Positions 1,953 through 61,242 of a stretch of DNA of 64,000 nucleotides are shown here, one piece after another. Source of the DNA: Odiellus spinosus (Eukaryota > Arthropoda > Arachnida > Opiliones > Phalangiidae). The stretch lies in contig OY987231.1 of the NCBI GenBank assembly GCA_963920705.1, positions 23,882,200-23,946,199 on the forward strand, given 5' to 3'. Position 1 is the stretch's first letter; each line of letters starts with the position of its first letter. A model generated the notes under the pieces. The model was not told the origin of the DNA and did not search any database. It saw only the letters and a list, made by a program, of their open reading frames with translations. The translations under genes were made by a program, and so were the position numbers.

Positions 1953-4900
1953 ATGAATGCGATGGAAATGCTGATCCGTAACAGTATGACATCCCTCCGT
2001 CACGGGAGCCAGGTGTCATTGATGTTAACGGAAGCGTTTCGAGAAGGAGATGATTTTAGTTGGTCTTGGGGTCATTTAAAAGTAAATATCTTTAAATTAA
2101 TTTTCAAATTTTTTACGATAAATTCTAAGATAATCTTTCATTTTCAGAGTCAGTTTGAGATTAAAAAAGCCGAACATTTATTTCACAAATACCAAGCCCG
2201 ATTGCAACATTCGTTACTGGTTTTAGTTATTTTAATTAATTTGCTTCTAAGTTTAAGTATGCTGATAACGAACTTGGTTCTATCGCAGGTAAGACTGCTA
2301 TGATATCGAGCTAAGCCTTGGCTTATATGATTCCCCATCCAAGCTTCGGCTTATAGTCTTATACTGTAGTAACTGTACCTCCTGCTAAGCCTTGGCTTAT
2401 ATGATACCCTCGCTAAGCCATGGCACATACAATTTCCCCACTAAACCTTGGCTTAGAGAATATCCCCATTAAGCCTTGGTTATATGGTATCCCCGCTAAG
2501 CCTTCAATTATACAGTATTTCACAAGTTCACACTAAGCCTTGGTTTAAGTTACACCCCCGCTAAGCCTTGAAATTAATGCATAACTGGATATATTACTCG
2601 TAAATTTCACAGTGCTATCAAATGAAAAGTCGAATGTCACTGGCACAAAGAAAATATTTCTTAAATTTCAAAACATTGTGCCATGAAGTAATTAAAAATA
2701 TATAAGATTGACTTTTCTAATTTAAATATAAAGATTTTCACGGAAACATCCAGTCTTATATCCAGGAAGCATTAGCTTCATTATTAATCCAAGGTGGCTT
2801 ACTTTCCTGATTTTTTTTTACAGGGGAATGTTGAAAAAGCCAAACTTTCCATAATATTTGCCTCAATTTCATTGATGGTTTACTTCGTTTTATTATCAGT
2901 CGCGCACAAGGAACATTGGTTTCGTACGAACGTAGCTCGAACTGTAGTTTCCATCGTCGTGTTATTTACAATGTGTCTACAAACTCACGGCTCGGCCGTG
3001 ATCACGGGGAAAGATGGAATTCGACCCACGTATTACGTCGTCCTCGTGAATTTTATTATGTTGCCTTATCCGAAACGTTACATTTGTATCATTGCTGGAA
3101 TCGCCGTCATATGCTTAGAATTGATTACAACCGCTCTTACAAGCAAAGTTGATGCAAAATTGGTAATTATTTTTTTTTTTTTCTATAGTTTAAGGTTGAA
3201 GTATTGGTGGAAAATTTGTATATATTTTAATCATCTTAGCTGGCTGCTGAAGGTGTGTTTTACGCAGCTGGAGCCAGTGTTGGATTTTATATTCGTTTCA
3301 TCATGGAAATGATGAATAGAAGAGCTTTTTTGGATCGTCGAGAATGTTTGGAGTCGAAAATAAAGCTGCAATTTGAGAAGCATCAAGAAGAGAGCCTCCT
3401 TAAGAGCGTTTTACCCGACTATTTGGCTGATCAAGTTAAAAATGACATCCGTCAAGTCATCATTCGCATTGAAAGGAGACCTTTTGAAAGAAGACCGTTT
3501 AATGAACTTTATATTGGCGAATATAAGAATGTCAGCATCCTTTACGCCGATATTGTCAACTCCATGAAATTAGCCGCTAGATTAGAAGCCAGGGAGTTGG
3601 TTGAGACTTTGAACGAATTGTTCGCTCGTTTCGACGATAAAGCCGAGGTTCGTAGTAATATACTTTTTGTTGTTGATGTTGAGTAGATGTTTGAGTACTT
3701 CACAATCGAGAAGATGAATACTTGTTAAACATTAAGTTTTTATCATACTCATAGGAGAATCTGAAGTTGATAGAGTACTCAAACAAATACTTGATTTTCT
3801 ACTTAAAGGAGCACTGAAATTAATACTCAAACGAGTACTCGAATCCCTACCTCAAACGAGTACTCGAATCCCTACCTCAAACGAGTACTCGAATCCCTAC
3901 CTCAAACGAGTACTCGAATCCCTACCTCAAACGAGTACTCGAATCCCTACCTCAAACGAGTACTCGAATCCCTACCTCAAACGAGTACTCGAATCACTAT
4001 TCATTTAAGTACTAAAATCAATACTCGTATTCCTTTTGAAATGAGTATTGGCTTTGCTAAAACTTGTGCTAGAACCAGTATTTGTAACATTACTCAAACA
4101 AATACTTGAAACACCACTCGAACTAGTACTTGAAACACTACTCAACCGAATATTTGATTGACTACTCAAAGAGTTGAAACCACTATTCAAATGAGTACTG
4201 TATAAACACTATTCAAATGAGTACTGTATAAACACTATTCAAATGAGTATCTTATAAACACTATTCAAATGAGTACTGTATAAACACTATTCAAAGTGGA
4301 ACTGGGACCTTTTCAAACGAGTACTCGATTGATATAAGTACTAACCCATCCCAAAAAAAATTGTTTCTGACACAATAAATTGACTGTCTGACAGAAAAAT
4401 CATTGTTTGAGGGTGAAACTGCTAGGAGATTGCTATTACTGCGTTTCCGGGGTTCCAAACCCTGATCCCGACCATTCTGACAACACCGTTCAAATGGGAT
4501 TGGATATGATTGAGATTATCTCTACCGTACGCGATGAAAGACAAGTCCCAGTTGATATGAGGATTGGAATTCATACCGGGAGGATTATGTGCGGACTAAT
4601 TGGAAGTCGTAAATGGCAATACGATATCTATTCTAAAGATGCTTTGATCGCGAGTCATATGGAGCATTGCGGCAAATCTGGGTAAGCTAATTCGTTTTAA
4701 AGTTAAAATAAAATTTATAAAGAAGTTTATCAACAGGCATGTTCATATTACTGACGTAACTTACGGAAATTTGAAACGAAAATATCAAATTGAGATTGGG
4801 GAAGCTCATTATAAGGACGCTTTTATTATTAACTCTGACGTTCGATGTACATATTTTATCAGTCCTCCCGTAAGTTTAATACGTAGTTTAATTAAAATGA

Positions 4901-11133: not shown

Positions 11134-12985
11134 TTAAAAATATTTATTTTATAATTAATTAATCAAAAAACTTCCTGAGAATAAATAGTTCCCGATTCTC
11201 CAGACTCCAGACCAGACGAGGGGGTATTTCTGATAGTAGATAATGAACTAATAGTAGGAAATCTACTGCCCCCTTTAACCCTTGTCTGAACTGTTAATTC
11301 TTTGGGGTCGTAATTCTAATATAGGATTTTCTACTATATCTTCCTACTGCAGCGTTACCCATAACACCTTTCAGTCTTAAACCAACCATGTTCTTTGTTC
11401 CGTGACTTCCGTCGGCTTCGACACCAATTTTACGACGCTTTTATTTGCAAACATTGTAAGTTTAATTCCTATAATTGTTGTAATATTAATTATATTTTGT
11501 AAAATAGTAACCCTTTATTCTTATTTGTTATCTAACAGGTTTATTTATTGCCGCGAAGAAGGTTGTCTTTAGTCGCGAGATTGTAAGATTTTACGTTAAG
11601 CCTTGGTCAATATCTGAGACTGGCTTTGGCTTGAGGATGAGAGCGGCGGCGCCGCACTAGTTTAAAACCCAAGAGCCACGTGACAAAACTGAACTAAAAC
11701 AGGAATAAACCTAAGCCTGGGCCATCGTCTCTCTACAAATGAATTATTAACTGAACATTTTGGACAAGGAGTGACTGAGACCTGTTTGTGAGTAAATAAT
11801 TTTTTTTTTTTCAATAATAGTGGGAAACCTTTAGTTCAAAAAGTGGCGCCCAATCGTCACAGAATGTGGGGTGATGTTCAGTATAGCAAACACCGTCAGT
11901 GGTAATTTTTGGTCAACAAAAACTGGTGAACCAGGTTTCGAAACATCAGGCTGCACGTGTATTGACACCCTGATCTCTCTTCATTACTGTACTGCGTAAG
12001 TGTAGGCTAACAGCCTATTATCGGGATTTAATTTTGAAAAATGGAGCAAACGACATTGAAATCCAATCATTTGATTTCGTTGAAAGTGGAGATCTGTGAA
12101 ATTTGTCAACACTGACTCTGAGTAGCCCGAGTGAAGCCAATAGTTTCCCACTATTAGTGTTTTAATAAGTGAGCAAAAATGCTTATGCCATTTTGCGCTC
12201 TGTAATTTTGCACAGATGTTTTTGCATGATTTTTATCATATTGGACTTTGCAAAGCGCACATTTTTGTAGTCATGATTCTAAGTATTGTGGTTGCCGTTT
12301 GCTAGTAACCTTTGTTATAATTAGAATTCCTGTTATTTTTGTGCCTTTTGCCGCATTCAAAGAGGGTTTACCCTCTTGGATTCAATAGTATAATTTTTAC
12401 CCATTTACTAACCCTGACATTACGGGTTAGGGAAAGCCATCTGGCGAATTGGGAGTGGGTTTTTGATATGCTTTGATATTTTGGGCTTTTTCCAAAAAAT
12501 GTTGCACTTTTTAAGCGGGATTATTAACTTATCCGGTTCCTGCCTTTTTCTGGCAGCATTAAGAACCTTTCTGGAAGTGCTGGCACTGGCTTTAACACCT
12601 CATAATTTTCACCTGATTTAGCAGCTTGCTCGCTTGCACTGAAATATATATGACCAGAACTTAAGTTCTTGATACGACTAATTTCCTCGCATTATTTGTA
12701 GTATTCATATTCGTACCAATCCTTATAGTTGTAAAGAGTTCGTATAGTACAAACCCTGTTGTAGTAGTTTCGTTCCTTGATATTACATTCCGCACTTTGG
12801 TTTTATGGTTTTTGGATTGTCTTTGCCATTTTGGCTTTGCGATACAATTTTTCATCGCACTTTTCGCAATCATTTAATTTTTTTGGCCATGAATTTTCTA
12901 ATATTTCGTAAGAAAGACTCGATATATTAGTCTTATTTGATTTGATCTTTGTTAATCGTTTCAAAGAATCAGCAAATCCCTCGAA
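11134..12985. other. intergenic, CFDP1/vezatin divergent 5' region
   Basis: Holds the 5' regions of both divergent genes. There is an E-box CCACGTGAC at about 11677, a possible 5' UTR donor CATTGTAAGT near 11455 followed by an acceptor near 11538, and a small inverted-repeat element (11812-12160). The minus frame at 12661-12873 has no coding features and is not accepted. Confidence 0.5.
11812..12160. mobile_element. possible small inverted-repeat element
   Basis: The left edge reads AATAGTGGGAAAC and the right edge carries its reverse complement GTTTCCCACTATT, about 320 bases apart, flanked by T-rich sequence. No protein is encoded. Just inside the left edge is TGGCGCCCAATCG (11844), which resembles a tRNA-Lys primer binding site; that reading is weak. 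A clear target duplication was not found. Confidence 0.4.
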
Positions 12986-15007
12986 ATGGCCGAGGAAGAT
13001 AAAGACAATGACACTGTCTTCTTGGAGGGATCTCCTCTTTACGAACTTTTCAAAAACAACGATATTGGATTAGGCGAATTCGAAACCAGTCGGAAATACG
13101 ACGAAAGTGTTACGCAACCTTTGTTGAATATTGAAACTGACTCTAATCTTACTACGCCTTCGTGGCTGGAATACGTTAAAGATAATGTAAAACGTCTTTT
13201 TCGTTATTTCGTATTAGAAGAACCAATTGATAATTGGCCCATTTACGAAACCGTGACTAATTTATTGATTGAAAGTAAACTTTTACATTCGGAAGATCAG
13301 GCCCTTTTGAAAGGCTTCTTAGAAGAGTATATCTTTAAAAATCGTCCAATTTCTACAGTTAAAAGTAGTTTTTATTATATAAGAAAACGAACAATTAACG
13401 CGTCAATATTTTTCTCATTGCTGATATTATTAACGGTATATTTTCCCTGTTTGGAGAGTTTCTCCGTAATATGGTACTCGCAGGGTCTACTTTTGCTCTT
13501 ATGGATAATGGTCCCTTATTGCTACATGAAGAACCAACGCGAGTTTAGGTACCATCGTCGAATTGATTTTATATCCAAACTCGAATTATTCTTACCTAAT
13601 TTGAAAGAATTTTGGAAAGTGACCCGTAAAAGTTTACGCGTAATACAAGAATCCGAAGTAATTGCTCGCGGTTTGACCTTCGTTTCGGTTCGGAATACGT
13701 CTTTGGAATTAAATTCTGTTTTACCATCGCGTCACCGAGAGAAACAGTGTCCGGAATTGCGTTCTTCGGTATTCAAACATTGTAGTAAACACTTTTTCGC
13801 GTGTCGAGACGCGACTGCTTGTTTGTTAAAAATATTTCCACTGACTGAAGGGTTCGATATGGAATCGCATTATTTATCAAACATGAAATTAGAAGAATTA
13901 GGACCACTGGTTCGGGTTAACGTTGATAGTAAAGAAATGTTAGAAATAACCGAACATTTTTCTACCCCCGCTTTGAAAGCTATGATAGAGTTAACCCGCG
14001 CTCAAGAATCTGAGCTTTTACGACGGATAGCTTTTTGTTTTCTATCCGATAATAATACTATCCGAATTTATGATGAAGTAATTAAACTTACTAACTTAAT
14101 TTTGGTTAATTTAAACTCCGCTAAATCTGGATTAGATAAAATACTACTTTATTACTCTTTATTGGGTAGGAATAACGAATTTAAGCGGGAACCTAGTACC
14201 AAACGCGAAGGAGATGACCCGATTCAATCTTTTAGAACGTCTGTTCGTAGTTTGAGCCTACACCTACAAGCTTCCTTAGTCAGACTTCAAGATTTAGAAA
14301 ATTATTTAGAAGTAAATGAAAACGAAGAATTTTCCGTTTTAAAGGATATAGTAGGAAGTTTAGGAACCCAATACCTGACCGAGGTCAAATCGGAGCTAGA
14401 AGCCGCTACAGTTTGTTACGAAGATAGTTTAGTTAGATCTTTACATATTATCGAAGGAATACCCTTGAAAAACACCACCCCTTCTCCCATAACCGATATG
14501 GATACTGATTTAATAAAGAGTAATAAGTCTTCGATACCACCCATAAATTTACTAGAAATGGGGGATCCCGTAGTCGAAGATCAAGTTTTTGAAGGTTCAG
14601 CCGAATATTCGCCAGATAATGAGGAAAGCTACGATGATTTACTCCCACCTTTATCTAAGAAAGCCCCGAGAATACTTTTAAACGAGCTTAAAACCGTATT
14701 AGCCGTTAAAGCTGAAGAACGTAAAGTTAGGGAAGCTAAAGTCCTAGGAATTGACCCGTCAGAGATACCCGATACCCAAATATTAACCCCGGATAAGCCC
14801 GCAAATACTGTTAATGATTCCCAGTCTCGCGCTAAGACTGAACGAACTCTTCTGTCAAAGGAAACTTTAGAAGAATTGAAAATAAAAGCAACATCGGGTA
14901 GTTCTTCGTTTATGACTTCAATCGCCGCCCAGGCCGCTTTAAGGTCGCAAACCTTTGGTGGTGTTAATTGTAACGAAGATATAATCGCCGATAGTGACTC
15001 GGAATGA
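12986..15007 (+). CDS. VEZT: vezatin
   Basis: One uninterrupted frame of 673 residues. It matches vezatin along its length: N-terminal DTVFLEGSPLYELF, a hydrophobic hairpin at about residues 135-180 (IFFSLLILLTVYF, GLLLLLWIMVPY), the vezatin core with LRVIQESEVIARGLTFV and SLPALK-like FSTPALKAMIEL, the helical segment SVRSLSLHLQASLVRLQDLE, and the conserved C-terminus (SFMTSIAAQAALRSQTFG). Vezatin is a membrane protein of adherens junctions that binds myosin VIIA and catenin complexes; in insects it also works with dynein on endosomes. It is somewhat shorter than the human protein (about 780). The lack of any intron is notable because most neighbours are rich in introns. Convergent with the receptor gene downstream. 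Confidence 0.9.
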   Translation: MAEEDKDNDTVFLEGSPLYELFKNNDIGLGEFETSRKYDESVTQPLLNIETDSNLTTPSWLEYVKDNVKRLFRYFVLEEPIDNWPIYETVTNLLIESKLLHSEDQALLKGFLEEYIFKNRPISTVKSSFYYIRKRTINASIFFSLLILLTVYFPCLESFSVIWYSQGLLLLLWIMVPYCYMKNQREFRYHRRIDFISKLELFLPNLKEFWKVTRKSLRVIQESEVIARGLTFVSVRNTSLELNSVLPSRHREKQCPELRSSVFKHCSKHFFACRDATACLLKIFPLTEGFDMESHYLSNMKLEELGPLVRVNVDSKEMLEITEHFSTPALKAMIELTRAQESELLRRIAFCFLSDNNTIRIYDEVIKLTNLILVNLNSAKSGLDKILLYYSLLGRNNEFKREPSTKREGDDPIQSFRTSVRSLSLHLQASLVRLQDLENYLEVNENEEFSVLKDIVGSLGTQYLTEVKSELEAATVCYEDSLVRSLHIIEGIPLKNTTPSPITDMDTDLIKSNKSSIPPINLLEMGDPVVEDQVFEGSAEYSPDNEESYDDLLPPLSKKAPRILLNELKTVLAVKAEERKVREAKVLGIDPSEIPDTQILTPDKPANTVNDSQSRAKTERTLLSKETLEELKIKATSGSSSFMTSIAAQAALRSQTFGGVNCNEDIIADSDSE

Positions 15008-32895: not shown

Positions 32896-34023
32896 ATGAC
32901 AAAGCGATCGGCAACTGAATCTAGTTTGAATAGAAGAGGGGAAGTTGGTCTAGGACCTTTGACCTTAGATGATTTAGGGTTAAATTTAGACGAAACGAGT
33001 TCGCGAAACGAGAGTTTACGACAAGACCCAGAAACGACTCGTTTTAATAAAAAAGTAATTATTTTTCGCTTTTAAATATATTAATTTAAATATTTAAGCT
33101 TATAATAATTTATTATAAAGTTCAAAAACTCGCTCGATAGCGACGAGGAGGATGACGAAGTTGAAGTCAAAGTACGCAGGAATGTACTTAACCCTCGCGA
33201 ATTGGAGGGCCAAGAAGAAGGTACGATTGATCACGATGGCGAAATACGAATAACTCCCTTCAATATGAAAGACGAATTGGAAGAAGGTCATTTCGATAAA
33301 GAAGGAACGTTCATTTTCGATAAAACTAATGAAATTAAAGATCACTGGCTTGATAATATTGACTGGATCAAAATTAAGAACCAACCTGTTAAAACCGCTA
33401 ATGATTCAGATAGCGACATGGAAGAGGAACCCGTAAACACCCACGAACTTTACAAAGAAATGTTAACCCTGATGGAACCGAAAGAAACGGTCTTAAAGGC
33501 CATCAAAAGATTAGGTGGCAACCTTAAAACCTCCGCTAGTAGTAAATGGCTTAAAAAGAAAAGTACAACGGAAGAAGAGGATGCCAAAGCTGCGGAAAAC
33601 CATGAGAAAACGTTACAATTAACCGCCCTAGCCGATAAAATTCTGAGCACGGGAAATATGGACGTTTATCAGCAAACGTACGAGAAGTTGAAGTTTCTCG
33701 TCCAATTAAAGGAAAAACCGGATAAAGAAGCCGCTGATATGTTTGGGGATGATTTTGATACGAAAGAAGTTGCCCAATCTGATGCTGAAAAACTAGCAGA
33801 AACAAATGCGGCAATTGAAGCCGCTACTTCTAACGAAGTTTTGTGGGAATTCAAATGGGAAGAAAAAGAAGATGCCCCCGTTTACGGACCTCATTCCTCG
33901 CAAGAAATGTTACGTTGGGTCGAAGAAGGATATTTTAAAGACGGGGTTCTAGTCAGAAAAACAAACGAAGCTAGTTCCTCGTTTTACAGCTCGAAACGAA
34001 TTGATTTTGATCTTTATACCTAA
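32896..34023 (+). CDS. CD2BP2: CD2 antigen cytoplasmic tail-binding protein 2 (U5-52K)
   Basis: Two exons, 32896-33054 and 33121-34023, phase 0 junction; 353 residues (human 341). The second exon starts FKNSLDSDEEDDEVE, followed by the conserved GQEEGTIDHDGEIRITPFNM and LDNIDWIKI. The C-terminus is a GYF domain: VLWEFKWEEKEDAPVYGPHS, MLRWVEEGYFKDGVLVR and the last residues FYSSKRIDFDLYT. The GYF domain binds proline-rich peptides such as those of the spliceosomal SmB protein; the protein is part of the 20S U5 snRNP and leaves before tri-snRNP activation. A polyadenylation signal AATAAAA follows at 34040. Convergent with the fusion gene (218 bases between stops). Confidence 0.95.
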
Positions 34024-34241
34024 AAACTTCATTTGTATTTAATAAAAATTTTGATCCTGTCTTTAATTTGTGTAATTAAAATATCTTAATTATGCGAGAA
34101 TAAACTTATATTAATTTTAAATGAAATTTAATCGCAAGTTACGCATTCTTTAATGACGCAAAAACAAAATGAATACAAAGTCAATATTTAGTCGAAATCT
34201 TAATTTATAGAAGTTTAAATCAAATTTATTTCAAATTGCAA

Positions 34242-37200
34242 TTATTCCATTTTAACTTCGGGTGTTTCTTCGTCATCAACCGGTTCATCAATCTGTTCAT
34301 CAATGTTTTCGTTATTATCTTCGTCCTCATTATCAGGGTTAGTTAAGGATGAAGCGCGAGAACTTCGCGTATTTCTAGCCGGCCCCTTTTTAGGATCAGT
34401 TTTTCCTTCCGTAACCTCTCTGGTTAGTAACGGAGGACAATCTTTGTCCTCGTCTTCGCTATGAGTCGATCTACGTCGAACTAGGCCTAACGCGTCGAGC
34501 ATACTTGGTTTCTCAGCTTCGGAAGCTGAAAATATAAGTTTTAATCTAATCAGAAAAACGCTCTAGTTAGGGCTGAGCGAGTATCATTTTTTTCCTTGTC
34601 GATTTGATTACCAAGTACCAAATCATTTTGTTACCAGTACGGGACGAGTAGTAGTTAGGACTTGGCTCATTCAAGCCTATACTATATTTTTATTTGATAA
34701 GGTTTAAAATTATTAGAGAAAATTTCGAGTATTCAAACGAGTACTCGTAAAAATTTGCCTATTCTGACAAGTACTTACTGCAGCGAGTAAACATTTATAA
34801 TCGGCCAAGGCCTAGTAGATAGTCTATCTACTTTTACGAGTACTCGTTTTAATACTCGAAATTTTCTCTAAAAATTTTAAACCTTATCAAATAAAAATCA
34901 GAAAGATTGTACGACTGATTGAATCAACCACGTACTCGCTCATCCTTATTTCTCGTAGACTTTCTTATTAATAATCTAGAACAAGAAACTGCCTTTATCG
35001 GCTGATTCCTCATTTATTTCTTTACTACCAGCATCCGAATCGATTCTACGACGTTTAGTTGGATTTTCGATTTCTTGCTTTTCAGGTTCGGGGATTTTTG
35101 ATAAAGTTTGATTTACAAACTCCTCTTCATTTTCATCTAAAACGACTAATGGTGGGAAAAAGGCAGAGCCAGTTTCGCAAGGGGAATCTTCCGGTTCTCT
35201 TTTAACCGTAGCGGCTAAAGCGGCCACTGTTGATGGATAAGCGGTTTTGTAACCGCATTGCTTCAAATGTTTAGCTGAAAAAAAAAATCTCAACAAATCA
35301 GAATAAGTTCCTGTAAAGTTTCTTGTTGAGTTAATGCGACGTACCAATTACATTTCCGTCTTTGGTATTAAATCCGCAAATGCAATGCAAGGGAATGTCC
35401 ATTTTCAAGGATTCCGAGATAAAATTCATTTCGCGTTTAGTTTTGGTTACGTTTGAATGTTGGGCAATCATATGATCAACAAAAGCTTTGCCGCAATAAG
35501 TCGAATAGTGACATTTACCGCAAATCATCTTTTTACTGGAAATAAGAGGCAAAATATATGAAGCGAGAACTTGTAAAAAGTTGGGTCAAACTTACGCGTA
35601 GTGAGTACGATCAATTGTGTGTCCACATTCGGCGCAAACGTGATGACCAGTTAAATTATCCACTTTAACGGGTGGTTCCTGATTGAGAGGGGGGTCTCTT
35701 TTGGGCGCGAGGCCTTGAGCCACGTACGGCTCCAATACGGGGATAGGTGATTTAATAGAGCTTTTCTTTACACCGGTACTCGGGCTTCTGGTCATTGTTT
35801 TAGGCCCCGGTTTATTAGTCGGATCAGGAACCAAAATAGGATTGTTCGTATTGATTGGTAATGGAACTACATCTGCAAAAGATTAATTACTTTTAGATAT
35901 TCTCAATGGTTGAATAATTAGTTCTTTGGACCTAGACTTAAAAGAGAAAACAAGTATTTGAGGTAGTATAAAGAGTGGAAAATGAGTACTCGGTAAAATA
36001 GAAAGTGAAAAATGAGTACTCAAAAGTCAAAACTATTACTGGATAAAATAGAAAAGGGGAAAATTGGCACTGTTTTTAGAAGAATGGTGATTTTTTTTTG
36101 GTTAAGAGACTTACCTTTCTTCTTGGCCATGGAAACGTGGTCTTTTTGCCTATGATTCTTCAATTCCATGATATTAACGAAAACCAAGCAACAACTGGAA
36201 CACTTCTTATTGGCCGACTTGATCTGATGTTTGTACAAATGATAATAATAGTTTTGTATCATGCCGACCGCTTCGGGAGTGGAGAATTTGACGTTGTAAG
36301 TCTTCAAGCAATAATGGCAAAGCAATTTGTTGCTTCCATTATGATTTTGTTGAAAATGATCGATGACTTCGCGATGGAACGAAGAGCGATAATTGCAAGC
36401 TTGACATCCGTAAGGAATCTCCGATTGAACGTGGTGATGTTTCATGTGATGAATGAGGGAAGATTTGCTGGCCAGAGCGTGATTACAAATTTTGCAAGCC
36501 AAGTCGTTGGTGCTCAGGTGAACGTTTTCCATGTGGCATTGCATCGAGTAGGGAGTGTCAAAGTCGCGGAAACAATACTTGCATTGAGTCAAGTCGCTAA
36601 GATCCGGGTTGCGTTGACGAGTTTGTTCCAAATGGGCCATTAGATGTTTCATCACCTTAAAAAACCAACAAAAAAGAACATACATTAAACGAATAATAGA
36701 AAGGGAGAGAAACGAGTACTCGATCAATTAAATGGGAGAGAAACGAGTACTCGATCAGTTAAAAGGTTGAGAAATGAAAAAACAACCTTGATATTGTTAT
36801 CCAAGATTTTTCGACAAACCAAGCACTGAAATTAATAATAATTAGCTTCAATCGTGACTTTAAAGCTAATTAAATCGTTACTTTGAAATGATAATTATTG
36901 AGATTTGGGTCAACTACAATTAAACTGGACTCTGGATTTTTGCGGGCGTAGAAGTAATTGTTTAAATCAACGAGTTTAGGCGGTTCTACTGGTTTGGGAG
37001 TTATTTGAACCGTGGGCTTTTTGGGTTGGGTGCTCCAGGTTCCGGAAGGTTTCGAAGTATTATCCAATTGAACGCTGCTGGCGCTATCATCGCTGCTACT
37101 TGAAGAGCCGCTACTCTGAAGAACAACATCATTCGGTACTATTACTATTGAATAAAAAATAATATTTGATTAGTAAAGTTCATCATTAGCTTTTAAAGGG

Positions 37201-40200
37201 AGAATGAAACCCAACAACAAGGGATTTTCTATCAATTCCTTATCATTTAAATTACACATTTTAAGCTGATTGGAAAGTAGGCTTAATAAGCATCCAAAGT
37301 ATTTGAAATTCTTTGTGGTAAACGGGCAAAAGTGTACGCCTCTTAAGCCTAATTTGAAATGTTTTACTGTCATATTAAAGCCAGCCCTTCTCCCTTGATT
37401 GGCCAGAGACTTCTTAATAGAAAGATATTAAATTCTTCTTTATAATTGATCAAATACTCGTTTCTCGCCCCTGTAATTGATCGAATACTCGTTTTTCCCT
37501 TTTTAATTGATCGAATACTCATTTTTTCCCCTTTTCTATTATAATAAGTACTAATTTGCTTCCCTTATGGATCCTTGTTAAGCCTACTTAATGATTAGGG
37601 AATTGACAGAAAATCACTCTCATAGTAGAAGACTCCCTCTAAGGAATGTTTTTTACATTTCCTTCCACTTTGGGAAGCGATATCGCTTATTATATTCCAA
37701 AAAGCCATTCTTGGAGATTGTCCAAAACGAGCTCTCCATTGATATTCATCCAGGAATCCTTGAATGGTTTCCGGTTTCAATTGAGACATTGAAAAAGATC
37801 CAAACATCCGCGTTAACTGAGTTTCCAAGTTTTCAACAGCAGTTTTAACAGTCAAATCCGAATTGAAAGTTTTGGTTTGATCGACGTATTTGTAGGTCAA
37901 AGATGATCTATTCATCGTAGCTAATTTATAATCAGTCGTGATAACGACGGTATGAGGAAACAACCAAAGATCCAAGAGTTTTTGAATGACTTGAGAGAGA
38001 CCCAAAGGTTGATTCTTAGCATCCGTGATAACTTTCATTCGAGTTTGTCTCGTTGATCGATCGTAAACTCCGACTATGATGTGCCAGCCCATTTTGACGG
38101 TAGCCACTTCTACTTTGGAGATGGGACCTCCCAGTTTCTGAGCTTTGGTTTCTAAAGCTTTGCCGCAAACTTCTTGTACGGCCCTCCAGACGGAACGTAC
38201 CATGTAAATATCCACCACGGTATCGTGAATGACGTGAAGAATATCGGATTGGATACTCCAATGAAAGATCAATCTATGCAACTTGTAAAGTTGAGCCCCA
38301 AATCGAGCGAAGAAACTTATCCTGGGAATTTGAACGGTACGCCCGCATTTAGGCGCTCTTTTACATCTCCATAAATATCCGTCCAAGGATAATTTGCAAG
38401 GAGATAATTCCATTTTATCTTTCATACAGAGGCATTTGATCTCGCGATCAATTAAACCCACTTTGGCTAACCAGATTATCGGAGCCGAAAGAAATTTATC
38501 TCGATCCAATTGCTGACCCAATTGGGTAATTTGAAGGTTCCGGACTTTCTTATTGCTATCCTCTATAGGCAATACTCTAATCGAGAGCAACGACTGAGCC
38601 ACTACAGTTTTATTTCCTCCACCAATTACTTTGTTAAAAACGTCAACTTGAGGTAAAGTAGTGGTGGCCCCGCTGACCGAAGTTATTTGAAGCCCAGACG
38701 TGTTTAAAGACGTTGTTTTGGTCGTTGGAATAGAGATGTTTTGGGTCTGGTTCAAAGTAATATCTGTGGAAAATAATTAACTAGATTAAAAAGGGGGCAA
38801 TTTTTCCGTATTGACGAGGAAAAAGAACGAACTCTTATTAGGTTGAAGTAAGGCGGAATCATTGGGAATGGTTCCAACAACTAAACCGGTCCTCGAATCG
38901 ACTAAAACTTTGTAGCTCAATTGATGGGTATTGGTCGAACTAGTCAAGGTATTGGTGGTATTTCCTAAAACGAGCGTCTGCTGGGGCATCATTCCTCTGA
39001 TGATTTGCATTCCTTGCGCAGTTTGAGCCAAAACCATGCCCGGTTGAAGTTGCATCGGTGTTCGAATTTGGTTCATGATCGGAGCTCTCACTTGATTCAT
39101 GGAAAGAGTTTGAGCTAAATTAAAAAAAATCTTGATTATTAGATATCGTACCATTATATTAGTAATTAGCTTAACGTACGTTTATGAGTCACGGTTATGT
39201 TCCTCGTCATTTGTTGTAACGAGGCGTTAGTAGCAATGGGTGAAGTATTAACTGGAGGAACTTCGCTAGTCGTGCAGTAAATAATCCTAGTATCTTTTCC
39301 ATTTTTATAAGACTGTAATTTCTTTTCAAATTGTTCGTTTAATTTCACGGCGTCTTGATAGGCTTTAACTTGAGCTGGTGAGAGAGGGGAGTCAACGCAA
39401 TCCATTTGTAGGTTCATGATATCCGTCCGATCTTTCAAAGGTAGAGGTTTGGAAAGCTCCACCTGGATTTGAGAAAGGCTTGGCGGATTAGCCTGTCCTC
39501 TTATCGGTTTATAAATCATCGTGGTTCCGGCTTTTGTTTGCGAAGGTTGGTTGGGTTTCATCGAGTACGTGATGGGCTGATTTTTTCCAGATGGGATCAT
39601 CATTTTATTCGGAGGAAGACTTATTTTGGTGTTTTGCGGTATTGGAACTTTGTTGGTATAAACTTGGGGTTTACCACCAGGGCCTTGCAATGTTATGGTA
39701 GTTCCTATTGGTAAAGATTTCCTTAGAGGATTGGCCACTGGAGGGGCGAGAAATTGCTTCGGGGCAATATTGGGTGGGGTTGTTTTCCTTTGAACGTTAC
39801 CGTAACTATAACCGGAAGTTGTAGGTTTTGTCTCGTCAAAATTGAACTTGATCTCTGGTCTATGAGGCGGGCTATCTTCTTCATCCTCCATACAATATTT
39901 CTGAACAGTTTTTTGTATTTTCTCAGCAGCCATTCTAGCCGCTCGTCGCGAGGGTCGGCCTTCGGGTGTTGTTTGAACTGGCTCAGGTTCTGGATCCGCC
40001 TTTTTCTTCTCATCCTTTTTCTTTTCCACCACAACCTTAACATCATCATCGGATATTTCGATATCACTGTTATTAAACCCCGAAAAGCCGTCCCCTTTTT
40101 TCCCCAGGTGTAAAGTTGGCACCACATCGGCTTTCACTTTATTGTTACCCTTTATAACTTCCTTCGGTTTAAAATGAGCCGAACATACTCTGCTGTTTTC

Positions 40201-40353
40201 ATTCACGTCGCAATCTTTGATGCCTAAAGAGTCGAACCATTGGTCTCGCAAGAATCCGGGTTTAGGGAGAGGAATCCAAGATAATGGGGGAGAACCTTGA
40301 CCCGGTCTGGAAGTATTGAAGCATGTTGGGCAAGCGCACGTTCTCATAGCCAT
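34242..40353 (-). CDS. THAP - Merlin-transposase-like - POGZ-type zinc-finger fusion protein
   Basis: Ten exons: 39180-40353, 38833-39114, 37657-38763, 36882-37144, 36787-36825, 36115-36655, 35596-35872, 35345-35535, 35029-35274, 34242-34525. All junctions are in phase; 1467 residues. Residues 1-85 form a THAP finger (CACPTC, SRVCSAHF, DVVPTLHL). Residues about 90-570 are disordered and rich in P, Q, T. Residues about 575-840 resemble Merlin/IS1595 transposases: a zinc knuckle (CLCMKDKM, LWRCKRAPKCGRTV), FFARFG, WLFPHTVVITTDYKLATMN, AVENLETQLTRMFG and FLDEYQWRARFG. Residues 855-1300 match POGZ/ZNF280: VDLNNYFYARKN, HFKCLVCRKILDNNIKVMKH, YGCQACNYRSSFHREVIDHF and a Cys finger with YSTYCGKAFVDHM. 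An acidic tail ends it. No pogo DDE is seen. Expected to be a nuclear DNA/chromatin-binding regulator; the function of the fusion is inferred. The exon 3 end is the least certain junction. Confidence 0.88.
34567..34947. mobile_element. 380-bp element with GAGTACTC-bearing inverted arms
   Basis: In the intron between exons 10 and 9 of the fusion gene. Outer ends GGGCTGAGCGAGTA and TACTCGCTCATCC; inner arms of about 65 bases pair closely (TTGATAAGGTTTAAAA, GAGAAAATTTCGAGTATT, ACGAGTACTCGTAAAA against their complements at 34836-34900). No coding capacity. Confidence 0.8.
35970..36030. repeat. GAGTACTC repeat, intron 6 of fusion gene
   Basis: Two units about 30 bases apart (GTGGAAAATGAGTACTCGGT and GTGAAAAATGAGTACTCAAA). 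Confidence 0.7.
36700..36775. repeat. 31-bp GAGTACTC repeat, intron 5 of fusion gene
   Basis: Two units of GAGAGAAACGAGTACTCGAT plus CAATTAAA, 31 bases apart, just upstream of exon 6. Confidence 0.8.
37440..37560. repeat. same 31-bp repeat, opposite orientation, intron 3
   Basis: Three units AATTGATCGAATACTCGTTT with C-rich spacers, starting near 37445, 37476 and 37506; the reverse complement of the unit at 36700. Confidence 0.8.
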
Positions 40354-41241
40354 GATTAACTAAATATATAATTAAGCTATCAATTATTAGAGATTGTATT
40401 CACTTCGAACGTCACCCAGTTCAATTTTTAATTTCATATCGTTTAGTTTTAAACAATGGTTTTTAAAAATTCACGCAAAGATAAAGTTAAAAATCCGTCT
40501 TTCACCCGGTTTTAGAATTGCCGCGAAAAATTTAAATTTTACGTTTAACAGCACCCCTATCGACTCGAATTGTAACTGTAACAGTTAAATTTATTACAAA
40601 TAACTTTTAACCCGCCAAAATTAATTTACTATAGCGTCATTTCGCCACCGTAGTCGGTATAGTTACTACCATTTTCCGCCATTTTGTTGATTTTTGGTAC
40701 CAAAGATGGCCGAACTCCCCGTAGGTAACTCTGAATGATGCTATTGGTTTTTCGCGAAACACGTGATAAGGTGAGGTCAAAAGCCTCGCACCAATTAGAA
40801 GCCGGTCCGACGAGAAACATTTTTGAACAAGTTTAAATTATAAGCCTAAATTTTCAGTTAAATTGTAAATTTTTATTTAAGGCTACTTCAAAATTTAGTA
40901 GTAAAATTTAATGAAAAAGTTTTGTCGCTTACAGTAAATTTGTTACGTGATTTTAATTTGTATAATACGAATATTTCTACTAATAATTAGTCTAATTTAA
41001 TCTTAATTAGGATAGGGTAGTTCAACAAAAGTATATATTAATAACGTTACTTTACTTTTGATCATACTTAATCATAGTATCTGGGAGTGATAGGGACTTT
41101 AAATTATTTACTTTTGATATCATCAAAAGTGTACGATTGATGGAAATTCATATTGAGAAGTTTTCTGGCGTATGAATCCATATATAAACGGATTGAAAAC
41201 TCTTCTTATCGTTTATTTATTATTCTGTTTTTTAACCATGA
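40354..41241. other. 5' region of the fusion gene
   Basis: On the minus strand it carries two YY1-like sites close to each other (AAAATGGCGGAAAATGG near 40683 and AAGATGGCCG near 40709) and the E-box ACACGTGATA near 40760, a plausible promoter. The 63-codon minus frame 40629-40820 overlaps these sites and is not accepted as a gene. Confidence 0.5.
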
Positions 41242-49435: not shown

Positions 49436-50335
49436 TTAAATGACTTTTTTGGGAGTAATATCGATATTATGATGCTTAGTGATATGTTTTCGTACAATTT
49501 TCTTGCTATAAAAATTTGCGTTACAACAACCGCAGCCAAACTTTGGTTTTAAACTTCCAATGATTGCTTTATGTTTCTCTCTTCGATGAATTTCCAATTG
49601 AATTCCGTGTTTGAAGGAAGATCCGCATAATCCGCAACGATATTTGTTAGTCTCTTTGATCAAAGCTCGATTATCTTGAGATTTTTCGATTTCTTCAATC
49701 GGATCATCCATAAAAGTGACCTTTTTAACCCTCGGACTTTGATTACGAGAATTACTTTGACCTCCTTGACTATTTCTTATTTGACTTTTATTCCCAGTTG
49801 GGTTTTGAATAATTTTCTCATTATTCCCTCCATTTCTATCTCTTAGAATAGATTTTACCGGAATATTTTGCTTTTGGTAACTAGCGTTATAACTTTCCGA
49901 CGAAGGGTAGGCATTTTTATCGATTAATATCACCGATATCTGATTGTGACTAGATTGTAGATGCTGACACAACGCGTTAGCGATGCTAAAAGCTAATCCG
50001 CATAAAACGCAACCAAATTTAGCTTTCTTTTGGACTAGATTTAGACATCTCGAATGATTTTTTCGAGCGTGATTAGTCAAACTCTCCAAATCTGCGTAGA
50101 TTAAAGCGCAAAAGGCGCAAGCATAGGGACTCCTACCGTGACTGGAAGTTGCGTGATGCCTCCATTCGTCATTTGACTCTAATTGAAAATCACATTCCTC
50201 GCATTTAGTAATGTTTTCTATAAAGTTTGGCACATTTTCGTAAGGTACGTGACTCCAGGAATGTATATTATATAAAATTGAAGATTCAAACTTAATGCCG
50301 CATAAATCGCAAGCTTCGTTAGACGCATTGGCCAT
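49436..50335 (-). CDS. C2H2 zinc-finger protein
   Basis: One exon, 299 residues, from the ATG that gives MANASNEACDLCG. Six Cys2-His2-type fingers can be seen (CDLC..., CEEC..., CAFC..., CVLC..., then after a basic, Asn/Gln-rich linker CGLC..., CGCC...), spaced irregularly rather than in the tandem linked form of classic DNA-binding arrays. The linker holds VKSILRD and KKVTFMDDPIEE, an RVxF-like phosphatase-1 docking motif followed by acidic residues. Likely nuclear; target unknown. An E-box GTCACGTGAT lies about 80 bases upstream of the ATG. A longer upstream frame exists but without an ATG. Confidence 0.8.
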   Translation of the reverse strand: MANASNEACDLCGIKFESSILYNIHSWSHVPYENVPNFIENITKCEECDFQLESNDEWRHHATSSHGRSPYACAFCALIYADLESLTNHARKNHSRCLNLVQKKAKFGCVLCGLAFSIANALCQHLQSSHNQISVILIDKNAYPSSESYNASYQKQNIPVKSILRDRNGGNNEKIIQNPTGNKSQIRNSQGGQSNSRNQSPRVKKVTFMDDPIEEIEKSQDNRALIKETNKYRCGLCGSSFKHGIQLEIHRREKHKAIIGSLKPKFGCGCCNANFYSKKIVRKHITKHHNIDITPKKVI

Positions 50336-50910
50336 CGTTAAAATATTATAAACTTCCGCCTCAGAATAGAGTAAATAGCGAGCCACTGACCCCGCCCTAG
50401 ATTTGAAATTAGTCACGTGATACGACGCACGCGCGGAATAGACTACTGATAAAGTAAAGGGAAAGTCTTACAAAACATTTTGTTGGTCATAATTTGGATT
50501 ATTTTAAATCAACTGATCAATGGAAAATTTCCATTTTAGTAAATGATATATAGATTAAAACTTGATAATTTCTACGCTTAATATAAAGAATAATTATACG
50601 ATTTAGTTTCTAAAAATTGGTATTTAATTTTTATGTTCTAGTACAAAAGCTTGGATGAAGTTAATATTTATTTTGGTTTAACAGAATTGTTAATTTTTTT
50701 AAACGTATCAGTATGAATTATTTACAAATTTTACACAAATATAATTATTTTTAACAATGAATCATTTAGTCTATTTACAATATTTACACAAAACTTTCTT
50801 GAACTGTGCAAAACTGCAGGCGTTGGTGGCCAACATCTGCTACTCGAAGAAGTAGAGTTTTGCTCTGTGTTCCTAGACAAGTTTTGTTTAGAGCTAAGGA
50901 CCGTAGTGAA

Positions 50911-59829: not shown

Positions 59830-60240
59830 GATAACAAATTCTAATCCAAAACTTTCGCAATTTGAATGACCTTTACTTCGCCGGGATTATTTTATATATC
59901 AAGGATTCGAGGTACGAGGGTGACTCGGTCAGTCGGGTGAAGACTCAACAGAAGCGTAAATTTCCGTTCAGCGACGAATCTTTTCATTATTTGGTGTTTT
60001 TTCGCTTGTCACTGAACGCTCTGCGCGGTCCAATTACGCGTCGTCTGCTAATATTATTAAATGTCACGCGAGGTAAGGGCTTGGTAAGGGTTGGTCTCTT
60101 TAGTTCTAATCGCTAAATTAAGATAGGAAATTTAAATAAACCTATAAGTATTGTTTACAAATATTGCTGGTCTAGAATTATGCACCGAGAGTAATCTTCT
60201 CGGAATAAATAAATATAGGTACTAGATTAAACGGTTAAGT
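59830..60240. promoter_or_regulatory. divergent promoter region ATP5F1E / CDC123
   Basis: 411 bases between two divergent start codons. No TATA box at a good distance was found. The plus frame that crosses the region (59862-60116) has no ATG and no family features and is not accepted. Confidence 0.5.
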
Positions 60241-61242
60241 ATGAAGGTTAGCCACGTTATGAACTGTAGTTTTCCAGTATGGTATGAAAAATTCAGTAAA
60301 ATCACCGCCGAAAGTATCATTATCGATCTACCACGCGAATTTACCGATTATTTGAAAGCGGACGGCGTCGTTCTTCCCGATTCATTAACACCGAGACCCT
60401 CTGGAATAGCGGTTTCTAATGACAGTGACTCGGATAGTGAAGTGGATTGGGGTTCCGCCGATGAAGAAGCCATGTCAGCTCCAAATTTCCCTGATCTAGA
60501 CGCCAAGATAAAAAAGGCTATAGGTGATTTGGGAGGAAAGATTTACCCGAAATTAAACTGGAGTTCGCCGAAAGACGCTTCCTGGATCGCTATGAACAAA
60601 AGTATCTGTTGTTACGCAGTCCGTGACATTTATCTCCTCCTCAAAAGTTCGGATTTCGTGTCTCACGATTTGACTCAACCCTTCAAAGATTGTTTCGACG
60701 CGGCTGAAAATAATTCTAACGTAGAATACAAGTTAATTCTGAGACAATGGAAAGAGATAGACCCTGCCAGCGAATTTCGTTGTTTCGTCAAAAGAAACAG
60801 ACTGATAGCGGTTAGTCAACGGGATCATACCAGTTTCTATTCCTACATCGAAAAGAGTAGGAAAGATATCATTCGGGATATTTCCTCGTTCTTTAACGAA
60901 CATTTAAAAAATAAGTTTTTCGATGATGATTTTGTTTTTGATGTTTATCGCAAATGCAAGGATGAAGTGAAGCTGATTGATTTTAATCCATTTGGGCCAA
61001 CGACCGACTCACTTTTGTTTGATTGGGGGGAATTGGAAGAAACTGAATTTGCCAGCGCCTTTCCCGAGATTAGATTCGTTAACGTTAACCGAGGGGTTCA
61101 GCCAAGTCCCTTGCGACGGTACGGATTGCCCAGGGACATGCTTGATCTCTCAACGGGACAAGATCCGCATAAACTCATAGATTTATTGTCTTTGGGAAAT
61201 CGAGGCACAAATGCCAATGAATTTTCATCCGATGAAGATTAG
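60241..61242 (+). CDS. CDC123: CDC123 (eIF2 assembly factor)
   Basis: One exon, 333 residues (human 336). The start MKVSHVMNCSFPVWYEKFSK, the acidic linker SDSDSEVDWGS, FPKLNWSSPKDASW-like KLNWSSPKDASWIAMN, EFRCFVKRNRLIAVSQRDHT and the ATP-grasp signature KLIDFNPFGPTTDSLLFDWG are all present, as is the acidic C-terminus EFSSDED. The protein binds eIF2 gamma in the cytosol and is needed to assemble the eIF2 heterotrimer. Like vezatin it has no introns. AATAAAAAATT about 60 bases after the stop is a likely polyadenylation signal. Confidence 0.96.
   Translation: MKVSHVMNCSFPVWYEKFSKITAESIIIDLPREFTDYLKADGVVLPDSLTPRPSGIAVSNDSDSDSEVDWGSADEEAMSAPNFPDLDAKIKKAIGDLGGKIYPKLNWSSPKDASWIAMNKSICCYAVRDIYLLLKSSDFVSHDLTQPFKDCFDAAENNSNVEYKLILRQWKEIDPASEFRCFVKRNRLIAVSQRDHTSFYSYIEKSRKDIIRDISSFFNEHLKNKFFDDDFVFDVYRKCKDEVKLIDFNPFGPTTDSLLFDWGELEETEFASAFPEIRFVNVNRGVQPSPLRRYGLPRDMLDLSTGQDPHKLIDLLSLGNRGTNANEFSSDED

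What the first reader, a model, noticed from the sequence alone, without database searches (positions are those of the whole stretch)
34242..40353. One gene joins a THAP finger, a Merlin-like transposase domain and POGZ-type zinc fingers
Ten exons on the minus strand stay in phase across all nine junctions and give 1467 residues. The three parts come from different sources: THAP is the DNA-binding domain of P-element transposases, the middle domain resembles Merlin/IS1595 transposases, and the fingers match POGZ/ZNF280. Established knowledge: vertebrate POGZ carries a C-terminal pogo-type DDE and no THAP or Merlin part. Here the pogo part is not seen. This would be a new domain arrangement in a chromatin regulator with two independent transposon captures. 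I know of no described example.
Basis: partly seen in the sequence, partly recalled or inferred. Interest (0 to 1): 0.88.

Follow-up and report, generated by a model that had tools for sequence, protein, structure and literature searches.

The report
Row chromatin gene with dead transposase
This is the arthropod Row gene, a regulator of how DNA is packed, which in relatives of spiders starts with a transposon-type DNA-binding finger and carries in its middle an old jumping-gene enzyme that has lost its cutting site, a part that also turns up in the fruit-fly version of the gene.

Summary

The gene is not new: it is the chelicerate-type ortholog of Row (relative of woc), Drosophila's HP1c partner. 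Fly Row has the middle domain too, so its capture probably predates the chelicerate-insect split; 12 lophotrochozoan-type and 3 fish relatives gave no match. THAP occurs in chelicerates, one oyster and one brachiopod. Two of three fish POGZ rows carry pogo instead. One HP1-linked zinc-finger chassis thus took up different DDE transposases in two lineages. Ten text searches showed no paper on the Row domain, but key Row papers were not read.

The parts
39180..40353 (-). exon 1 (aa 1-392): start codon, THAP domain, LxMDC motif
40108..40338 (-). THAP domain (aa 6-82), C2CH type
   Evidence: 34.4 bits, cut-off 23.9; PDB chains of THAP1 at E 0.0013 and 0.0076, best row (E 1.2e-4) named only hypothetical protein
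39319..39420 (-). conserved N-terminal motif around LQMDCVDSPLSPAQ (aa 312-345), shared with fly Row and mollusc relatives
38833..39114 (-). exon 2 (aa 392-486), linker
37657..38763 (-). exon 3 (aa 486-855), holds the whole middle domain
37658..38539 (-). middle domain (aa 561-854): zinc-ribbon remnant, helical linker, RNase H-like DDE core without the first catalytic Asp
   Evidence: fold; profile comparison with IS1595; catalytic columns
36882..37144 (-). exon 4 (aa 855-942), linker
36787..36825 (-). exon 5 (aa 943-955), start of the finger block
36115..36655 (-). exon 6 (aa 956-1136), C2H2 finger cluster
35596..35872 (-). exon 7 (aa 1136-1228), start of the zf-POGZ double finger
35345..35535 (-). 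exon 8 (aa 1228-1292), end of the zf-POGZ double finger
35466..35645 (-). zf-POGZ double zinc finger (aa 1212-1251), interrupted by intron 7; inferred HP1-binding module
   Evidence: 37.2 bits, cut-off 27
35029..35274 (-). exon 9 (aa 1292-1374), end of the last finger and an FPPL stretch
34242..34525 (-). exon 10 (aa 1374-1467) and stop codon; acidic C terminus
34473..34502 (-). MLDALGLVRR motif (aa 1382-1391); the pattern is in 26 of 28 protostome sequences (window included) and 0 of 3 fish

Best explanation
The locus is the chelicerate-type ortholog of Row (relative of woc), a chromatin regulator. Shown by computation: one gene with an N-terminal THAP finger, an IS1595-family (Merlin-type) transposase-derived domain without its first catalytic Asp, a C2H2 finger block and a POGZ-type double zinc finger; the middle domain is shared by chelicerates and insects. 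Inferred: a transposase of this family was captured into a pre-existing POGZ/Row-like gene before chelicerates and insects split, lost catalysis and was kept as a scaffold. Inferred mechanism: THAP and the C2H2 fingers hold DNA, the zf-POGZ finger recruits HP1, and the dead DDE domain serves as a self-association or partner-docking surface (or non-cutting DNA clamp), so that the protein delivers HP1 to promoters as Row does in flies. Fly Row lacks THAP and keeps the rest.
Against: Pfam gives no significant IS1595 match (best E 0.02, 2 of 9 sequences); only 2 of 10 single IS1595 sequences reach over 80% in hhalign. Foldseek TM-scores are low (about 0.3 by query length) and rmsd large, because the alignments run over several domains. 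No eukaryotic Merlin transposase was compared. No expression, binding or knock-out data for this species. Orthology was judged by sequence and motif, without synteny or reciprocal search, and the finger-block tree does not recover arthropods as one clade: two flies and a mayfly sit on very long branches apart from the 23 other rows, and the fork holding the chelicerates is open. Fly Row's HP1 role may not carry over to chelicerates.
Confidence: 0.8

Rival explanations
1. Two or three neighbouring genes (a THAP gene, a transposase remnant, a zinc-finger gene) have been joined on paper by the reader.
For: Exons 1, 3 and 6 lie in long open frames of their own, and donor choice at exon 9 is not unique.
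Against: The same order in one uninterrupted frame of 1452 aa (P0001) and in annotated proteins of horseshoe crabs, a scorpion and ticks.
Confidence: 0.03
2. The middle domain is an RNase H-like domain from another source (for example a retroviral-type integrase or another DDE transposon), not IS1595/Merlin.
For: The best solved-structure matches are integrases, and no Pfam IS1595 match is significant.
Against: Profile comparison selects IS1595 and, with the chelicerate sequences, also covers the zinc-ribbon part. A listing led by integrases says only which folds are in that library.
Confidence: 0.08
3. THAP is ancestral to the whole protostome POGZ/Row family and was lost in flies and many molluscs, rather than gained in chelicerates.
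For: THAP in Ostrea (aa 6-85, N-terminal as in chelicerates) and Lingula (aa 208-292) together with zf-POGZ; Lingula's THAP scores 48.1 bits against Centruroides, 35% identity.
Against: In Lingula THAP lies after, not before, the LxMEC motif. Lingula's THAP scores alike against Ostrea (47.8 bits) and Centruroides; Ostrea's scores 47.0 against Lingula but 33.1 or less against every chelicerate. Unrelated THAPs were not compared, so such scores may be ordinary. 10 of 12 lophotrochozoan-type rows have no THAP listed (some are single isoforms). THAP genes diversified independently in Crassostrea and, less so, Lingula (PMC10027918, passages).
Confidence: 0.4
4. The transposase domain still binds transposon-end-like DNA and silences Merlin-type elements, a self-defence role.
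For: A precedent type exists: transposases co-opted for DNA binding and TE repression (PMC8101967, passages).
Against: Untested: no Merlin element of this genome was examined (genome search gave no answer); the domain is far diverged, 13% identity to IS1595.
Confidence: 0.1

Closest known systems
Drosophila Row (relative of woc), HP1c complex
   Same: Finger block, zf-POGZ, N-terminal LxMEC-type motif, middle domain and LGLVRR motif (compared with D. subobscura and Anastrepha proteins).
   Different: Fly Row has no THAP and carries an insertion in the DDE core; its zinc-ribbon Cys are only partly kept.
Vertebrate POGZ
   Same: C2H2 block and zf-POGZ double finger.
   Different: Esox and Astyanax POGZ carry a C-terminal pogo DDE_1 (none listed for Umbra); no middle-domain match and no LGLVRR motif in 3 of 3 fish; no THAP listed.
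IS1595 / Merlin transposases
   Same: Zinc ribbon, linker and DDE-type core in the same order by profile comparison.
   Different: First catalytic Asp lost, fused inside a host gene; no convincing terminal inverted repeats, only two weak AT-rich pairs span the domain.
WOC / ZMYM proteins
   Same: Chromatin zinc-finger proteins with a domesticated transposon enzyme that lost catalytic residues; WOC is Row's partner (PMC3212892, PMC9078007, passages).
   Different: Theirs is a Crypton tyrosine recombinase (DUF3504), not a DDE transposase.

Membership tests
Row / POGZ-like zinc-finger family | zf-POGZ double zinc finger above the Pfam cut-off | tested here: met
   37.2 bits against 27
Row / POGZ-like zinc-finger family | Same C2H2 finger order with invariant Cys/His | tested here: met
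   alignment of 11 sequences
Row / POGZ-like zinc-finger family | LGL[VM][RK][RK] motif of protostome members | tested here: met
   present here; 26 of 28 protostome sequences (window included), 0 of 3 fish
Row / POGZ-like zinc-finger family | Middle domain shared with fly Row | tested here: met
Row / POGZ-like zinc-finger family | Binding of HP1 | not testable with these tools
   known for fly Row from papers only
Row / POGZ-like zinc-finger family | Orthology by synteny or reciprocal best match | not tested
   no eukaryotic genome was searched
Row / POGZ-like zinc-finger family | Grouping with fly Row in a tree | tested here: inconclusive
   flies on long branches apart from the 23 other rows; window pairs with P0001 (100/100)
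Vertebrate POGZ | C-terminal pogo DDE_1 | tested here: not met
   no DDE_1 reported at E 1 or better in 1467 aa; found in Esox
THAP-domain proteins | C2CH finger, Pfam THAP above cut-off | tested here: met
   34.4 bits against 23.9
IS1595/Merlin transposase (descent) | Profile-profile match specific to IS1595 | tested here: met
IS1595/Merlin transposase (descent) | Pfam DDE_Tnp_IS1595 match | tested here: not met
   none for the window's domain; weak rows for 2 of 9 members, best E 0.02
IS1595/Merlin transposase (descent) | RNase H-like DDE fold | tested here: met
   predicted models only; fly type 103, 107, 108
Active IS1595/Merlin transposase | Intact DDE triad | tested here: not met
   first Asp absent in 40 of 40
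Active IS1595/Merlin transposon | Terminal inverted repeats around the transposase | tested here: inconclusive
   of 21 inverted pairs in 34200-40500 two weak AT-rich ones span the domain (24 nt at 75%, 19 nt at 79%); they look like chance, not tested by shuffling
Merlin (eukaryotic branch) in particular | Closer to eukaryotic Merlin than to prokaryotic IS1595 | not tested
   no Merlin sequence was at hand

The most novel reading that the evidence does not exclude
One HP1-recruiting zinc-finger chassis has taken up unrelated DDE transposases at least twice: an IS1595/Merlin type in the arthropod stem (Row) and a pogo type in vertebrates (POGZ), beside a THAP finger in chelicerates, while Row's partner WOC carries a Crypton recombinase. 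The dead DDE fold would then be a repeatedly selected dimerisation or docking module of HP1 complexes, and the well-studied fly protein Row would hide an unrecognised, very old domesticated transposase.
Probability: 0.55. Interest if true: 0.8.

Novelty: new variant of a known kind. Interest (0 to 1): 0.64.

Why it matters
Host-transposase fusions are a known route to new regulators, and POGZ, a gene of autism and intellectual disability, is a standard example. If arthropod Row carries a different, inactive DDE transposase in the same zinc-finger chassis, the DDE part of POGZ is probably a later gain rather than the founding part, and the question of what these dead transposases do can be tested in flies, where Row, WOC and HP1c are tractable. 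It would also add an IS1595/Merlin-type domestication about as old as the chelicerate-insect split.

Tried and rejected
Direct Pfam, NCBIfam and PDB sequence scans for the middle domain gave nothing significant; weak rows such as Phage_int_M (E 0.07) are taken as chance. The separate-genes reading was rejected. The readthrough model ending at 34976 (1390 aa) is kept as a possible isoform; relatives carry the exon-10 motif. The genome search did not complete, so own-genome Merlin copies and other THAP genes were not looked at. A motif pattern for the MEC region matched nothing and was dropped as badly written, and the HPZ pattern there missed many true cases; neither is used. BFVD again listed mainly retroviral Pol proteins and added nothing. 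The control transposase sets have only 1-3 members against 10 for IS1595, which is why depth-matched triples were run. The tree warns of long branches, so only the window-P0001 pair (100/100) is relied on. Hermes (hAT) is listed for the fly model and not among the 50 rows for the window model; families not listed there are not excluded.

Full report
Gene model. They join in phase, all nine introns are GT..AG (56 to 512 nt), and the product has 1467 residues. The last donor is one of several in-phase candidates; reading on from exon 9 instead would stop at 34976 with 1390 residues. Exon 10 is favoured because it encodes MLDALGLVRR; the pattern is in 26 of 28 protostome sequences examined (window included) and in 0 of 3 fish. 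An unnamed relative, P0001, carries the same protein as one 1452-residue frame on a 4544-nt contig, which in view of the nine introns here is best read as a transcript (inference). 871 of 1402 aligned residues are identical; six of nine junctions lie in well-aligned stretches, those at aa 392, 486 and 1374 do not.

Known domains. Pfam finds THAP (aa 6-82) and zf-POGZ (aa 1212-1251) above their cut-offs, plus sub-threshold C2H2 fingers; it reports no pogo DDE_1. Against PDB sequences the THAP piece matches two THAP1 chains at E 0.0013 and 0.0076 and, best, a chain called hypothetical protein at E 1.2e-4.

What the gene is. A search with residues 580-1300 returned 15 proteins. P0001-P0012 are chelicerate-type: horseshoe crabs, scorpions, ticks and four unnamed rows (P0001, P0007, P0009, P0011) placed by similarity only. 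11 of these 12 are listed with THAP; P0002, an isoform, is not. The other three, one unnamed row (P0013) and two flies, are listed without THAP. NCBI calls the Dermacentor protein row and the Amblyomma protein relative of woc. The alignment shows the middle domain in the two flies as well, not in P0013. A profile search with nine middle domains listed 120 of 164 hits; the listed rows that bear an organism name are insects (butterfly, moth, sandfly, dragonfly, mayfly, ant), and the 15 that I read look like Row pieces; 44 hits were not shown. A C2CH pattern in the first 400 residues was found only in 12 chelicerate-type rows, Lingula and Ostrea among the fetched proteins, most of which are fragments. 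So the gene is the Row ortholog of a chelicerate-like arthropod. In a tree of the finger block the window pairs with P0001 (100/100) and lies nearest by path to scorpions and horseshoe crabs; but the chelicerate rows hang on an open fork, and flies and mayfly sit on long branches apart from the 23 other rows, so the tree neither settles the species group nor recovers arthropods as one clade.

Which DDE family. Ten IS1595 transposases were taken from annotated plasmids (alignment). Hhalign gave 97.4% and E 1.4e-11 over 234 columns, including the zinc-ribbon part. With 40 middle domains the value is 97.33%; chelicerates alone (14) 96.37%, the other 26 alone 93.95%, the last over 212 columns that begin after the ribbon. 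Nine other transposase sets (IS701, IS5, IS110, IS6, IS4, IS630, IS21, an integrase core, Tn3; 1-3 members each) gave at most 0.78%, and a reversed query at most 1.34%. Against it: single IS1595 sequences reached over 80% in only 2 of 10 cases. Depth-matched triples reached 50% or more in 27 of 30 draws, reversed triples in 0 of 30. E-values are for single comparisons. No eukaryotic Merlin sequence was available, so 'Merlin' is an inference from that superfamily being the eukaryotic kin of IS1595 (PMC8101967, passages). That paper says described Merlin elements lack the zinc domain, with a few exceptions, so the ribbon remnant here (C-x-C ... C-x5-C in the window, C-x2-C ... C-x4-C in Limulus) is notable.

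Catalysis. The VE(I)D motif of IS1595 reads VEVA here. In 40 of 40 sequences the first Asp is not present (Ala, Gly or Ser, with one gap). The fold alignment agrees if no gap intervenes: position 64 of the avian sarcoma virus core, the catalytic one (recalled), would face Ala146 of the model (range 141-271 against 59-197). The second Asp is kept in all 26 non-chelicerate sequences and, allowing a one-residue insertion, in 11 of 14 chelicerate ones. The third acidic residue is not in register in the hhalign alignment; a D or E sits close by in many, so that point is inconclusive. The loss of the first Asp suffices to predict no catalysis (inference). Of 21 inverted pairs in 34200-40500 two weak AT-rich ones (24 nt at 75%, 19 nt at 79%) span the domain; I take them as chance but did not test it.

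Distribution. A search from Limulus residues 380-1120 gave 20 proteins: six chelicerate-type rows, eleven mollusc or brachiopod rows and three fish POGZ rows. None of these 14 non-arthropod rows, nor P0013, matches the middle-domain profile at 1e-3 (15 of 15). Ostrea and Lingula have THAP (54.4 and 65.1 bits), in Ostrea at the N terminus and in Lingula after the LxMEC motif. Esox and Astyanax are listed with pogo DDE_1, Umbra is not (Esox at aa 1138-1263). The simplest history is an old zinc-finger chassis that gained an IS1595-type domain on the arthropod side and a pogo transposase on the vertebrate side; deuterostomes other than three fish, and ecdysozoans other than arthropods, were not seen. 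One paper describes POGZ as a pogo transposase that obtained fingers (PMC7386202, passages); the finger chassis in protostomes without pogo suggests the reverse order. THAP may be ancestral or gained more than once; the pairwise scores do not decide.

Function. In flies Row and WOC bring HP1c to active promoters, Row recruiting HP1c and WOC recruiting Ubiquilin (PMC9078007, passages). PMC2662408 (passages) describes Row as having zinc fingers and HMG-I/Y motifs; the passages I saw name no transposase part. WOC carries a Crypton recombinase domain that lost its catalytic site (PMC3212892, passages). I therefore propose that the dead DDE domain is a self-association or docking part of an HP1-recruiting protein, with DNA contacts from THAP and the fingers. 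That zf-POGZ binds HP1 is recalled from work on vertebrate POGZ and is not tested here. No step of the mechanism is shown experimentally for this species.

Literature. Ten text searches listed nothing whose title or shown start of abstract describes a transposase domain in Row. Of these papers I saw passages of six and only listings of the rest. The paper on ROW and BEAF-32 is not held, and two further Row papers known from reference lists (Font-Burgada 2008, Di Mauro 2020) were not looked up, so this is 'not found', not 'not in print'.

Verdict. Observation confirmed; interpretation partly supported. The gene is an ortholog of a known chromatin factor, but the nature and age of its middle domain appear to be unrecognised in what I could search, and are worth a specialist's attention.

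Noticed in passing
window 3826-3999, 34737-34847, 35982-35992, 36712-36754, 37482-37492: A palindromic unit around ACGAGTACTCG recurs in introns of this gene and in a 7 x 25 bp array elsewhere: 27 matches on both strands with up to one mismatch (the palindrome counts twice at many sites) against 0.41 expected.
   Followed up: partly
window 34686-34898: Intron 9 holds two 67-nt arms, 97% complementary, 79 nt apart: a MITE-like foldback.
   Followed up: no
window 34473-34502: The LGL[VM][RK][RK] motif near the C terminus is kept in 26 of 28 protostome sequences, 0 of 3 fish; its partner is unknown.
   Followed up: partly
window 33109-34023 (+): A GYF-domain gene (resembling CD2BP2, name recalled) ends convergently about 220 bp from this gene's stop.
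   Followed up: no
window 12956-15007 (+), 60226-61242 (+), 49436-50467 (-): Coding frames with vezatin, D123 and C2H2 zinc-finger matches.
   Followed up: no
P0149 (Esox lucius) and P0150 (Astyanax mexicanus) POGZ: Ray-finned fish POGZ carry pogo DDE_1, while PMC7386202 places POGZ's recruitment in lobe-finned fish: the capture may be older.
   Followed up: no
P0142 (Lingula anatina), P0144 (Ostrea edulis): THAP plus zf-POGZ outside arthropods, with THAP in different positions.
   Followed up: partly
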